Positions 43,701 to 49,700 of a stretch of DNA of 64,000 nt are shown here, piece after piece. The DNA is taken from contig NC_091120.1 of NCBI RefSeq assembly GCF_040183065.1, positions 169,043,488 through 169,107,487 of the forward strand, read 5' to 3'. Numbering within the stretch: the stretch's first letter is position 1; each line of letters starts with the position of its first letter. Position numbers and translations under genes: made by a program. The stretch comes from Periplaneta americana (lineage: Eukaryota > Arthropoda > Insecta > Blattodea > Blattidae). Below the pieces are notes generated by a model. It saw only the letters and a list, made by a program, of their open reading frames with translations, did not search any database and was not told the DNA's origin.

Positions 43701-46700
43701 TTCTGTCACTTCCGCTTTAACTTTCTCCACTTCCTTTGCACATTTCAAACGAATGTTATTCACATCTTTAGTGGAATCTAAACTTAACTTTTCATTCTGC
43801 ATTTCTTTTTCATGCTTTGATTCCATGTTTTCAATTTCTCCTTTATGGGTTTTCGTTAAGTCTTTTACAAGTTGTTTTAGCTTTATTTCGTATTCCTCTC
43901 TCAAGAAATCCATTTCATTATGGTATTTCTGTTCTAACTCTAGTTTAACATTTTCCAACTCGTCCCAATATTCAACAAGGCATTTTTCAAAGTCTGTTCG
44001 ATAATGTTCTTCCAGATCCCTAAAAATCACAATAAATCAATTGTTTTAAGTGCTACATAAACGTATACAGGGTGAACCGTAAGTAATGTCACTAATTTCA
44101 GGGGGTTATTCATTGAGATTTTTCAAGCAAAAACATTTAATACAATCCATTTTGAATCTTGCGTACACTACTTTTAACACTTCATTATAAGCAGGGAAAG
44201 GATTTATATGTAAATACATATTTACTTATAAAGCTAATATAATTTATATTTTGCATTATCTTTATGTTTCACAATGTGTAGGGTTGAAAAATCCTACTTT
44301 TATTTTCCATATTTTTCCATATTTTAGAGTTTAGTACATATTTTCGTTAATTTCCATATATTTTCCATATTTCATATAAAACAGTCCATATTATATTAGG
44401 TTTAACAATAAAACAAAACAAAATTCCATTAACTTTTAAAAATACATTTCAACAATAGAGATTTAAACACATGTTCAGTAATCCCTTTAACATCAGAGTT
44501 ATTTGAAAATTAGCAGTCCTATCAACAATGGGAAAGTAAGTTACAAAACTGTATTAATTTAATTTAAAATTTTTAACAGACTTCAGTTGTGCAGCTCAAC
44601 AGTTAAATGCCAGTCAGAGTACACATAGGTTCAGTTTTGTAAATCATACTATAAAGACGGTAAATATGCCAAAAGTACGTCATTCAGTCAATTTAAAATC
44701 AAAACTAACAAGTTACATTTCAGAATTTAAAGAAGATGGTTTATCAACTGACAATAAAATATTATTTTGTAATTTGTGTCAGTGTGCAGTATCATCTACA
44801 CAAAAGTTCCTGGTGCAACAACACATTACAACTAGTAAACATCAGGCCAACAAACAACTAAATTCCAAGCAGAGACAATTGTTTTTAACACAACCAACAA
44901 CATCGAATGTAAGATCTGAGTTTAACATCGACCTGTGCCGTTCTCTCATCTCTGCTGATATTCCTCTCTACAAACTAAAGAATAAGGTCTTCAGGGAATT
45001 CCTTGAAAAATATACTCAACATACAATCCCGGATGAGTCAACACTTAGGAAGACGTATGCTCCATCCATCTACGATGAGACAATACAGAAGATAAGAGAT
45101 GAAATTAAAGATAGTTCAATTTGGGTTTCCATTGATGAGACTCCCGACAAAGAAGGTAGACTTGTTGGTAATGTAGTTATCGGTTTGTTAAGTGAACAAT
45201 ATTCTGAACGAATTCTTTTACATTGTGATGTTCTAGAAAAGTGCAATAACAAAACTATAGTTAAACTGTTCAACGAAGCTATGGGTATCCTGTGGCCAAA
45301 GGGTATTATGTACGATAATGTGTTATTCTTTATTAGCGATGCTGCCCCTTATATGGTCAAAGCTGGACAAGCATTATCTGTTGTATATCCTAAATTGACT
45401 CATTTTACTTGTGTGGCGCATGCATTTCATCGTGTGGCAGAAGTGGTCAGAGACAATTTCCCTAAAGTAGATTTGTTGATTTCATCAGTGAAAAAAGTAT
45501 TTCTCAAAGCTCCCAGTAGAGTTAACGTGTTGAAAGAAATGTACCCTGAAATTCCATTGCCACCAAAGCCAATTTTAACTAGATGGGGTACATGGCTAGA
45601 AGCAGTTGAATATTATGCCGAACATATAGACTCTATTAACAATGTTCTCCTTGCATTGGACTCTGAAGATGCAGTCTCAATTGATACTGCGAAAACAGTT
45701 ACCTGTGACATAAGTGTGAAGAATGACTTAGCTCACATTCAGCATACATTTTCATGCATCATAAAAACGCTCAAAAGTCTCCAAAATAGGCACCTTTCAC
45801 TATCTGAAAGTTTTGAAATTATAAATAGTACTGTGGAACAACTGAATCGTGGTAGAGGTAAAGTTGCAGATGCAGTAAGAGCTAAGGTGGACACTGTACT
45901 TTCAAAAAACCCTGGATATGAAGAACTACAAAAGGTTGTTGCTGTGATGAGTGGTGAATCAACAGTGAAGATTAACTTGGACTTATCCCCAGCAGACATT
46001 GTGAAATTGAATTATGTACCAGTTACTTCTTGTGACGTCGAACGCTCTTTTAGTCAGTATAAATCTATCCTCAGAGACAATAGAAGAAGATTCACTTTTC
46101 AGCACTTGAAAGAAATGTTTGTAACCTATTGTTATGGTAACAGACAATAAAAATTGTGTTTTGTTGAAACTACATTGGAAGATAAGGTACGTCCATTATA
46201 TTTTTTGTTTAGTTTGATTAAAATGTACCAATATTTAACGTACATAGTCATTTTTTTATAATTTTAAGTCCATATTTAATTCCATATTTTGGTAAAAATC
46301 CATATTTAATTCCATATTTTGGTAAAAATAACTACATATATATTTACATATTTCATATATTTTTAGTCCATATAAATCCGTTCCCTGATTATAAGTAACT
46401 GATTAACTAGCGGAACTTACTCGTGTTAATTATGTAAGTCTGTGCGGCTTACAGCTGTTTCGGTGCTTCATCACACCATCCTCAGAGCCTACTAGATCTC
46501 GGCGTCATCTCGAACTTCTCTGCCTGTTGTGTGGGTGCGTTTGATTGTTGAAAAGCGGAGTCAAATAGTGTGTGTGTACTGAAATTGATCTGTGTGTTGA
46601 GAATTTGATCAGGGTGTGTTTTAGCGTGTTTGTATATTTCATGGACATGACAATCCTACACATACAACCCAAGAACCAAAAACTCAAGCACTAGAACAAT

Positions 46701-49700
46701 ATGAAATATACAAACACACTAAAATACACCCTGATCAAATTCTCAACACACAGATCAATTTCAGTGCACACACACTATTTGACTCCACTTTTCAACAATC
46801 AAACGTACCCACACAACAGGCAGAGAAGTTCGAGATGACGCCGAGAACCAGTAGGCTCTGAGGATGGTGTGATGAAGCACCGAAACAGCTGTAAGCCGCA
46901 CGGACTTACATAATTAACACAAGTAAGTTCCGCTAGTTAATCAATTACTTACATTTAATAAAAAATTTGCTCGTTTTTGCTTTTTTTCTGAGATAAAAAT
47001 TGTTTCATATTAAACATTTCATAGCGTGTTTTGGGAAAGCCACTGCTTTAATTCTCAATATGCTCAGTCAGGTCAGTTTAAGAGAGCAGTGTATTATGAT
47101 AGTCATCACTTGCCCTACAGGCCGAGGTGATTGTTGGCATCTTCAACAATTCTTCTCCATGTCTCACGCTCCTGTGCTTTCCTTCTCCAATTCCGAATTC
47201 CGAGCCTTAGTAAATCTTCTGTCACTTCGTCCAACCATCTAAGTTCTCGGTCTTCCTTGTTTTCTGTACCCCTCTGCTTCATTCAATAAAAGTTTTTTGG
47301 GAGTTTCTCTTCCATCCATCCTCATAACATGTCCCAGCCATCTTATTCTTGAGGATTTTATGGTGGAAATTATATCGTGGTCTAAAAACATTTCGTATAG
47401 TTCGTAATTATATCTCCTTCTCCAGTTACCTCTATCATTAACTGGGCCATAAATTCGTCTAAGTATCTTTCTTACAAAAGATGCAGGAGAATTTTCTTAT
47501 GAACATTTCCCCATGTTGAAGTAGATTTAAAGGAGTTATTAAATGCGTTGATTTCTACTTTTTGTTTTCTGTTCAGGAGATAAGACTCAAACCACTGATA
47601 TGCTATGCCTTTAATACCATAGTATTCTAATGTTTGTAGTAGAATTTTATGGTTAATACAATCAAAAGCTTTGGAGAGATCACAGAATATCCCTCCTACT
47701 TGTAATTTTTTATTAATAGCTTCCAGAATTTTATCAGTTAAATTAAACGTTGCTTGCTCAGTTGATTTATTCTTTCTGAATCCAAATTGTTCTGGAATGA
47801 GAATGTTGTATCTATCAAGATGATGATATACTCTTTTATATATAACTTTTTCGAAGACCTTTGAGAAGACTGGTAGAAGGGATATGGGCCTGTAGTTTTC
47901 GGGCTGGCATGGTTTTACTGATGATTTTATTATGATAGTAAATGACTGAAATAATTTTAGTTTTATCCTTAAATGCAGAAATTTGATCCAAACAAATGTA
48001 CCGGTAACATTTTAAAATTTGTTTCAGAACGAAAAGTTGCATTTGTTCGGATCAAATTTATGCACATTTAAAGGACGAAACTAAAATTATTTCAATAATT
48101 TATTATCATAATATATTGCTCTCTTAAATTGACTGAGAGTATTGGGAATTAAATCAATGGTTTTCCCAAAACACACTATAAAATGTTTAATATAAAACAA
48201 TTTTTTAGATATCTCGAAAAGGAAGTAAAAACGAGCAAAATTGTATTAAACTTTTTTGTGTGAAATATCTCAAAGAATAACTCCCTGTAAAGAATGATAT
48301 TAGTTGCAGTTCATTCTTTATATGCATGTAAGTGAAAAAGTGTATAGAGCTCACATCAAATGTAATCAACGACAGAAATTTAACTTTTTATTAATTCATA
48401 AATGATAAATATAATAAATATGAACTGCTTATCAATGAAATCATGCACTTGTATTCCTTGTTATTAGAAATGTAGCCTACTAATTAAAATATAAATTGTT
48501 TCAAGACTACACATATAACCCGTCAGCATAAAACGTCAATGGCTGAATGCTCCAGAATTTAATGTAGGTATTCAACTCACTTAAATGGTTCAGAATACCA
48601 CAAGCTTAATAAAAAAAGTGCCAAGTATAGACTATATTTGTGAAGTTATTAACCTCATCTCTCTGATTGGTTTGATCATTAAATACCGAAAAGCAAATCA
48701 AACACCTGTGCCATATGTAATGTGGGGAGATATCGAAGACTGACAATACAAATGGATCAAATTTGTGGTAAAACAGTTTAAATAGACCTACATATTACCG
48801 TTACCCACTGCAGCTGTTCCTTTTTATTTCCTAGGTTATCCTAGTGATTTTATGGCATTCCTGAGCTTAGGCTAATTTAATATTTTTTGTAGGCACACAG
48901 AGAGAAAAAGAGTTCTCGTAAGGTCGAGTATCAGTGACAGGTTAGTTCAGATTTTTAATAGCCTATGCTTTGCATAGCCTATATGCATTTTGGTGATCGG
49001 TAGGTAGGTATGGATAGATATCCGCCTTCCTTTGGTAGCGCAATTGCAAAGAATTACCTTTTAATGTAATGAAGATAAGTAGGTAGGCCTATTGAGCTTC
49101 AAATTCTCCAATGAGTTATACTGTAACATTTGGTTAGGGACTTGCATATGTAGAAGTGTAGCTACTAACTGCCAAAATGCGTTTTTAATTGGTTCTTTTA
49201 CGACGCTTTATCAATTAGTATAGTTATCTAGCGTTTAAGTGAGATAAAGATCATAATGCCGGCGAAATGAGTCCAGGGTCCAACACGTAAAGTTACCCAG
49301 CATTTGCTCTTAATGGGTTGAGGGAAAACCTCAACCACGTAATTTGTTCCAACATCCAACCAGGATTTGAATCCAGGGCCATTTCAAGGTCAGGTATACT
49401 AACCGTTACTCCACAGCGGTGGGACGTCAAAATGTATTAACAGGATGTTAAATGTAGGCCTATGTTTTACTCAAAAATAATTTCATTACTGGTAGTACTA
49501 AACAGTTTGATTGGAGTGAAGTGAATGCTAACGTACAAACTTATACTTATGATGTAAGTTACACAGTTCTTGTCAATTTATTTATCAGTTTCCAAATCCA
49601 AGTAGCCTTTTATGACAATTTTTGTAAAATATTCACACTTTACTGTCCTCTTTTGACCCTTTTTTCGACGAGGAAAATATTAAAATGCCCGTTTTGTTTT

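What the first reader, a model, noticed from the sequence alone, without database searches (positions are those of the whole stretch)
46391..46951. Inverted repeat whose arms each hold a complete minimal hammerhead ribozyme
In the right arm (46854-46897) every part of a type I hammerhead can be read in order: stem I GGCT/AGCC, CTGAGGA, stem II GGTG/CACC, GAAA, palindromic stem III ACAGCTGT, and a GUA cleavage triplet. The left arm has the same on the minus strand. Hammerheads are established in Penelope-like retroelements and small tandem retrozymes; an inverted pair facing outward from a 59-bp spacer is less usual. Here a stop-ended frame runs right up to the ribozyme, as at Penelope-like ends. 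The arrangement sits in an intron, so a transcript read from either strand would contain one sense hammerhead.
Basis: partly seen in the sequence, partly recalled or inferred. Interest (0 to 1): 0.78.

Follow-up and report, generated by a model that had tools for sequence, protein, structure and literature searches.

The report
Inverted Penelope retroelement ends with ribozymes
Two shortened copies of what is most likely the tail end of a Penelope-type jumping gene sit back to back here, each with the small self-cutting RNA motif such elements are known to carry; the arrangement is already described for this group, and this example keeps clear traces of how it landed.

Summary
Arms 46392-46642 and 46701-46951 (251 nt, 10 mismatches) each hold the same 44-nt minimal type I hammerhead, at 46854-46897 (+) and 46446-46489 (-). 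A descriptor scan finds only these two, and none in 100 simulated windows. Rfam finds no hammerhead in three searches, perhaps because helix III has no loop and an extra U follows A9. The arms are most likely 3' ends of a Penelope-like element (PLE), inferred from architecture; no sequence match was found. The end of a reading frame (its UGA stop inside the hammerhead core) is followed by a short 3' region. The pair looks like one insertion: a 12/14 target duplication flanks it, and the other arm of an older inverted repeat preserves the insertion-free site. The left copy has a 41-nt extra tail, interrupted by a later hAT transposon; the right copy lacks it. Head-to-head PLE copies, short target duplications, an optional 30-40-nt tail and minimal hammerheads are all published: a new member of a known kind. 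In a transcript of this locus each hammerhead is predicted to pair with its antisense copy, so local cleavage is unlikely. The most interesting reading: a record of reverse transcription primed from both target strands.

The parts
44133..44146 (.). left copy of the target site duplication, ACATTTAATACAAT
   Evidence: 12 of 14 identical to 46951-46964; its inner 11 nt are where the two flank alignments to the insertion-free site overlap; 18 of 400,000 random position pairs in the window reach 12/14
44147..44183 (-). outer 37 nt of the left copy's inferred 3' tail (minus-strand sense), separated from its arm by the hAT insertion
   Evidence: lies between the end of the empty-site homology (44146) and the hAT target duplication; with 46388-46391 it makes 41 nt that the right copy lacks. 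That it is PLE sequence is inferred: no second copy of it was available
44192..46387 (+). hAT transposon (open frame 44558-46150) inserted in the left tail; 8-bp target duplication ATTATAAG at 44184-44191 and 46388-46395
   Evidence: 99.8% identical over 2208 nt to the copy at 21253-23448, which has its own duplication GTTATGAT; frame matches Pfam DUF659; the class name hAT is recalled from the ends and the 8-bp duplication
46392..46642 (-). left PLE 3'-end copy, 5'-truncated, minus-strand sense
   Evidence: 96% complementary to 46701-46951
46446..46489 (-). minimal type I hammerhead; predicted cleavage after 46450 reading the minus strand
46482..46642 (-). end of the reading frame [28 protein letters not shown]...SRL*, read as the C-terminus of the PLE protein
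   Evidence: assignment rests on recall, no database match
46643..46700 (+). spacer; most likely the extra 5' part of the right copy, since the arm's frame stays open through it; contains half of a small palindrome TCATGGACATGA (46639-46650) across the junction
46643..46861 (+). end of the reading frame ...[33 protein letters not shown]...SRL*, stop TGA 46859-46861 inside the hammerhead core
46701..46951 (+). right PLE 3'-end copy, plus-strand sense, no tail
46854..46897 (+). minimal type I hammerhead; predicted cleavage after 46893; ATG 46872-46874 in loop II
46951..46964 (.). right copy of the target site duplication, ACATTTAATAAAAA (its first A is also the last base of the arm)
48240..48256 (-). 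insertion-free site in the other arm of the older inverted repeat (reverse complement AAAAAGTTTAATACAAT)
   Evidence: that arm aligns with 44064-44146 (65 of 83 identical) and 46954-47101 (123 of 153 columns), the two overlapping by 11 nt

Best explanation
This is the remnant of one Penelope-like element (PLE) insertion in head-to-head form: two 5'-truncated copies of the element's 3' end, in opposite orientation, 3' ends outward, truncated 5' ends joined in the middle. The most likely route (inferred, about 0.40; the confidence below is for a PLE insertion made in one event, whatever the route) is that the element's endonuclease nicked both strands of an AT-rich target with a stagger of about 11-14 nt. 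Each free 3' end primed reverse transcription of a separate element RNA, one starting at a distal internal site (left copy, with tail), one at a proximal site (right copy, no tail). Both cDNAs stopped early and were joined; filling in the stagger gave the target duplication. Later a hAT transposon landed in the left tail and the arms drifted to 4% difference. The hammerhead is the element's own minimal type I motif, expected to act between two sense copies in tandem PLE RNA. At this locus it is a passenger, buried in a predicted hairpin. Shown here: anatomy, duplication, insertion-free site, unequal 3' ends, order of insertions. Inferred: PLE identity, two-strand priming, dimeric cleavage, inactivity here.
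For: Arms and hammerheads. One duplication brackets the pair, with an insertion-free relative of the site; neither ACATTTAATA nor TTTAATA occurs in 46392-46950. A 41-nt extra 3' end on the left copy only, as published for PLEs: a 31-bp tail optionally on one of the inverted pLTRs with a 9-bp duplication in a rotifer element (PMC3846280, passages), and a 30-40-bp tail lying between two RT start sites in PAc (PMC11167929, parts 1-2 of 4 read). Geometry from the ATG in loop II: cleavage after nt 22, right copy ends at nt 80, left at nt 121 (arithmetic); PAc: cleavage 26 bp after its start codon, commonest RT start 111-118 bp into the ORF. PAc cuts and extends both strands in vitro. Flanks 75% A+T against 65% in the window (53 nt). 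Two copies of the 44-mer are predicted to form a dimeric hammerhead as the minimum-energy structure. In transcripts of either strand the core pairs with its antisense copy, mean probability 0.9996. Four of the 10 arm differences gain or lose a CpG.
Against: No sequence match ties the arms to a known PLE: no confirmed relative in viral contigs or genome contigs, none in Pfam or the PDB; these are not collections of eukaryotic repeats. No Rfam hammerhead match. The homodimer energy is not exceptional: 23 of 300 letter shuffles reach it, and the monomer's predicted fold is not a hammerhead. The ATG in loop II opens only 13 codons, so it is not shown to start the element's main frame, as it does in PAc. 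The tail (A+C 0.49) and the right copy's end (0.55) are not AC-rich, unlike the PAc start site. The tail has no second copy to prove it is PLE sequence. The duplication has 2 mismatches in 14. A small palindrome (5-bp stem, 2-nt loop) spans the junction, which could speak for self-priming; 8.6% of positions in the window lie inside such a stem. No difference falls in the hammerhead, but chance allows that (P 0.17), so no constraint is shown.
Confidence: 0.78

Rival explanations
1. Snap-back or self-priming: one cDNA or an antisense RNA folded back on itself and was copied, giving the head-to-head PLE pair, as proposed for rotifer Penelope elements. This is a rival for the route, not for the PLE identity.
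For: Proposed in print from palindromes at inverted junctions (PMC3846280, passages). Here a 5-bp stem with a 2-nt loop, TCATGGACATGA, spans the junction (46639-46650), and the spacer can be read as the loop of a larger fold-back, since the arm's frame is open through it.
Against: The palindrome is short and such stems cover 8.6% of positions in the window. The two 3' ends differ by 41 nt, which two independent starts explain more simply. PAc extends both strands in vitro.
Confidence: 0.3
2. Two independent PLE insertions, the second landing at the 5' junction of the first.
For: [quoted passage not shown]
Against: One duplication pair only, outside both copies; TTTAATA does not occur between. 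Arms differ by only 10 of 251.
Confidence: 0.05
3. A non-autonomous fold-back element with a hammerhead in each arm that moves as a unit of about 560 bp.
For: Symmetric arms, short spacer, flanking duplication.
Against: The ends are unequal, the arms contain the end of a coding frame, and a search of the window finds no other copy. The whole genome could not be searched.
Confidence: 0.08
4. The hammerhead likeness is accidental and the arms are an unrelated repeat.
For: Rfam finds nothing; the homodimer energy is ordinary.
Against: 0 descriptor hits in 100 simulated windows; conserved core, cleavage triplet and three helices occur together, at the end of a reading frame.
Confidence: 0.03
5. 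The hairpin has been taken over by the host as a source of small RNAs or as a regulated ribozyme.
For: Long hairpin (predicted MFE -452 and -463 kcal/mol for the two strands); hairpins from inverted Penelope copies in introns have been proposed as small-RNA sources (PMC1431729, passages).
Against: No sign of constraint: arms differ by 4%, and absence of change in the hammerhead is within chance. A hAT insertion in the tail is tolerated. No expression data were available.
Confidence: 0.05

Closest known systems
Penelope insertions with an inverted pLTR in the rotifer Adineta vaga (Pen2a_Av and others; PMC3846280, passages read)
   Same: inverted copies, head to head; short target duplication (8-10 bp in three cases there, none in some; about 11-14 here); optional 3' tail on one of the inverted repeats (31 bp there, 41 nt here)
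   Different: here both copies are reduced to the 3' end; the cause proposed there is self-priming, here two-strand priming seems somewhat simpler
Poseidon PAc of Anolis carolinensis (PMC11167929, parts 1-2 of 4 read)
   Same: hammerhead around a start codon (cleavage 26 bp after it; after nt 22 here), commonest RT start at nt 111-118 of the ORF (121 here), tail between two start sites, AT-rich target, both strands cut and extended in vitro
   Different: no sequence comparison was possible; the ATG here opens only 13 codons; the start sites here are not AC-rich. In PAc, hammerhead mutants did not change insertion in vitro, cleavage needed the protein, and no RNA-seq ends were found at the cleavage site
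Inverted Penelope copies in Drosophila virilis introns, one in toy (PMC1431729, passages read)
   Same: inverted Penelope pair within 100 bp, predicted hairpin
   Different: the passages I read do not mention hammerheads
Minimal type I hammerheads of PLEs (Cervera and de la Pena 2014; Lunse et al. 2017; neither paper was held, seen only as citations in PMC7761336; reviews PMC7761336 and PMC6155905, passages)
   Same: minimal type I, little or no helix III beyond the conserved part, possible cleavage as dimers
   Different: extra U between A9 and helix II; whether that is common among PLE hammerheads could not be checked
CChMVd plus-strand hammerhead (PMC3705267, passages read)
   Same: one extra nucleotide after A9; there an A, and its change to U is reported to raise trans-cleavage 3-4-fold
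   Different: a viroid ribozyme with loop-loop contacts

Membership tests
Penelope-like element insertion | reverse transcriptase and GIY-YIG endonuclease frame | not testable with these tools
   only the last 53 (left) and up to 72 (right) codons of a frame remain; no Pfam or PDB match
Penelope-like element insertion | sequence homology to a known PLE | tested here: inconclusive
   no confirmed relative in viral contigs or genome contigs; those collections are viral and prokaryotic; no eukaryotic repeat library was available
Penelope-like element insertion | minimal type I hammerhead in the terminal region | tested here: met
Penelope-like element insertion | short target site duplication around the composite (present in most, not all, cases in PMC3846280 passages) | tested here: met
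   12 of 14, with insertion-free site
Penelope-like element insertion | inverted 5'-truncated copy, head to head (common, not universal) | tested here: met
Penelope-like element insertion | optional 3' tail of about 30-40 nt on one copy | tested here: met
   41 nt on the left copy only, by length and place, not by sequence
Hammerhead ribozyme, type I | core CUGANGA, GAA, NUH cleavage triplet and three helices in order | tested here: met
   one extra U between core and helix II; helix III complete only between two copies
Hammerhead ribozyme, type I | match to an Rfam hammerhead model | tested here: not met
   this is a database criterion rather than a defining property, but it lowers certainty
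Hammerhead ribozyme, type I | self-cleavage | not testable with these tools
   needs a bench assay of a transcript with two tandem copies
Metazoan retrozyme | direct tandem repeats of about 150-300 bp, each with a hammerhead (PMC7761336, passages) | tested here: not met
   no direct repeat of the arm; copies are inverted and contain the end of a coding frame

The most novel reading that the evidence does not exclude
The locus is a natural record of PLE integration by target-primed reverse transcription from both nicked strands at once, each strand choosing its own internal RNA start site (one distal with tail, one proximal without). That would give the head-to-head PLE structure a direct cause and make the antisense self-priming proposed in 2013 unnecessary.
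Probability: 0.4. Interest if true: 0.5.

Novelty: new member of a known kind. Interest (0 to 1): 0.28.

Why it matters
How Penelope-like elements integrate, and why they often land as inverted pairs, is still open in the papers seen (PMC3846280 and PMC11167929). A locus with an insertion-free site, a target duplication and unequal 3' ends points to a simple test between two routes: tails and truncation points of the two copies should vary independently if both strands prime. That can be checked in any genome rich in such pairs. The ribozyme itself adds little beyond an example with an extra U in the core and a stop codon inside it.

Tried and rejected
Rfam search for the hammerhead at three scopes found none; miRNA-precursor and snoRNA-type hits below threshold were set aside as an effect of the long hairpin or as chance. 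A first descriptor without the extra base found nothing and was replaced by one allowing it. Relatives: the protein query in viral contigs (7 stretches matched a pattern) and genome contigs (43 stretches) had none confirmed by tblastn; metagenome contigs was not scanned. The hammerhead pattern in viral contigs gave 3 loci; read by eye around the match they look like viral coding DNA, two of them near-identical, and I take them as chance matches without further test. A degenerate pattern for EIYKHxKxHP gave 0 viral and 2 bacterial stretches whose translations do not, by eye, resemble the query beyond the pattern. A weak tblastn stretch at 19290-19322 of the window (E 8.4, 11 residues) was dropped. 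A tail stretch printed (44148-44189) used a range later corrected. Retrozyme, fold-back unit and two separate insertions were considered and rated above. Selection on the hammerhead was not shown. Papers opened but used little or not at all: PMC12910113, PMC8969392, PMC7229834 and PMC4918200, passages only.
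Full report
What was claimed and what is there. The finding describes an inverted repeat at 46391-46951 with a minimal hammerhead in each arm. The repeat is real: arms 46392-46642 and 46701-46951, 251 nt, 10 mismatches, 58 nt between. Each arm holds the same 44-nt motif, at 46854-46897 on the plus strand and 46446-46489 on the minus strand: stem I GGCT/AGCC, core CTGAGGA, an extra T, stem II GGTG/CACC (plus one T-G pair towards the loop), GAA, palindromic stem III ACAGCTGT, and the cleavage triplet GTA.

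Rfam does not see it. No hammerhead family matched at gathering scores over the window, nor at E up to 10 in the 581-bp or 73-bp stretch. I suspect the cause is that helix III has no loop and that the core has one extra base, but I could not run a known PLE hammerhead as a positive control. An extra base at that position occurs in a working hammerhead: the CChMVd plus-strand ribozyme has an extra A after A9, and changing it to U is reported to raise trans-cleavage 3-4-fold (PMC3705267, passages). Folding two copies of the 44-mer together gives a dimeric hammerhead as the minimum-energy structure, but its energy is not exceptional (23 of 300 letter shuffles are as low), and the monomer with flanks is predicted to fold otherwise.

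Whose end is it. In each copy an open frame runs up to the ribozyme and stops at a TGA inside the core CTGAGGA. The peptide (...[32 protein letters not shown]...SRL*) looks to me like the C-terminus of a PLE endonuclease, but that is recall: no confirmed match in viral contigs or genome contigs, none in Pfam or the PDB, and neither a eukaryotic repeat library nor the whole genome was available. The case for a PLE therefore rests on architecture.

Insertion anatomy. A self-comparison of the window showed that 44064-44146 and 46954-47101 both match, inverted, one stretch at 48104-48322. So the PLE pair sits inside the left arm of an older inverted repeat, and the right arm preserves the site without it. 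The two flank alignments to that site (65 of 83 and 123 of 153 columns identical) overlap by 11 nt, the expected sign of a target duplication; it reads ACATTTAATACAAT at 44133-44146 and ACATTTAATAAAAA at 46951-46964, 12 of 14 alike. Random pairs of positions reach 12 of 14 in 18 of 400,000 draws. Between the left duplication and the left arm lies a hAT transposon, 44192-46387, with an exact 8-bp duplication ATTATAAG, 99.8% identical to another copy at 21253-23448. The left PLE copy thus runs 41 nt further (37 nt at 44147-44183 and 4 nt at 46388-46391) than the right copy, which ends at the duplication. That these 41 nt are PLE sequence is inferred from their place; no second copy was available.

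Comparison with published PLE anatomy. [quoted passage not shown] head-to-head is called the most frequently observed inverted arrangement, though some families have mostly direct pLTRs and some insertions no duplication (PMC3846280, passages). In the lizard PLE PAc the tail corresponds to the sequence between two internal reverse transcription start sites, the commonest start is 111-118 bp into the ORF, the hammerhead cleaves 26 bp after the start codon, and the protein cuts and extends both target strands, preferring AT-rich DNA (PMC11167929, parts 1-2 of 4). Here, counting from the ATG in loop II at 46872, cleavage falls after nt 22, the right copy ends at nt 80 and the left at nt 121 (arithmetic). 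The flanks are 75% A+T against 65% in the window (53 nt). Two points do not fit: this ATG opens only 13 codons, and neither copy's end is AC-rich (A+C 0.49 and 0.55), unlike the PAc start site.

Mechanism. One target duplication outside both copies, no copy of it between them, unequal 3' ends and different truncation points are what two cDNAs primed from the two nicked strands and joined in the middle would leave. Self-priming, proposed in PMC3846280 from palindromes at junctions, remains possible: a small palindrome, TCATGGACATGA, spans the junction here (46639-46650), though 8.6% of positions in the window lie inside such a stem. I put two-strand priming at about 0.40 and self-priming at about 0.30.

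Does the ribozyme act here. A transcript of either strand has one sense and one antisense copy; in the predicted fold of the two 581-nt transcripts the 36 core-region bases pair with the antisense copy with mean probability 0.9996. With no loop on helix III a monomer is not expected to cleave, and minimal PLE hammerheads are described as possibly cleaving as dimers, with unknown role (PMC7761336, passages). In PAc, hammerhead mutants did not affect insertion in vitro, cleavage needed the protein, and no RNA-seq ends were found at the cleavage site (PMC11167929). So at this locus it is most likely silent. No difference between the arms falls in the hammerhead, but chance gives that in 17% of cases, so no selection can be claimed. 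Four of the 10 differences gain or lose a CpG, as ordinary decay would do.

Verdict. A well-preserved head-to-head insertion, most likely of a PLE, with minimal hammerheads: a new member of a known kind, ordinary as a ribozyme find, moderately useful as a record of how PLEs integrate. The paper searches were made, on an open-licence library that lacks the main PLE-hammerhead papers; I make no claim about what is not in print.

Noticed in passing
44064-44146 plus 46954-47101, and 48104-48322: Arms of an older inverted repeat (78-80% alike) around about 1 kb holding minus-strand reverse transcriptase sequence (RVT_1 in 47475-48011); possibly another retroelement in inverted form.
   Followed up: partly
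21253-23448 and 44192-46387: Two hAT copies, 99.8% identical, each with an open frame of 530 codons and an exact 8-bp target duplication: recent transposition.
   Followed up: partly
34117-35853: Long minisatellite-like stretch open on both strands, with repeating FFIFQNRIGTNLMN / FVPILFWNIKKFIK in the ORF list.
   Followed up: no
2648-2722, 12323-12394, 13229-13301: tRNA family matches; the first and third overlap stretches repeated elsewhere in the window, perhaps tRNA-derived SINEs.
   Followed up: no
51483-52031 and 54815-55759: Plus-strand frames with a PX domain and leucine-rich repeats, a nischarin-like gene by recall.
   Followed up: no
46859-46861 and 46892-46896: The frame's UGA stop is part of the hammerhead core, and the cleavage site GUA/AG also reads as a splice-donor-like GUAAG (by eye); whether either is kept in relatives is unknown.
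   Followed up: no
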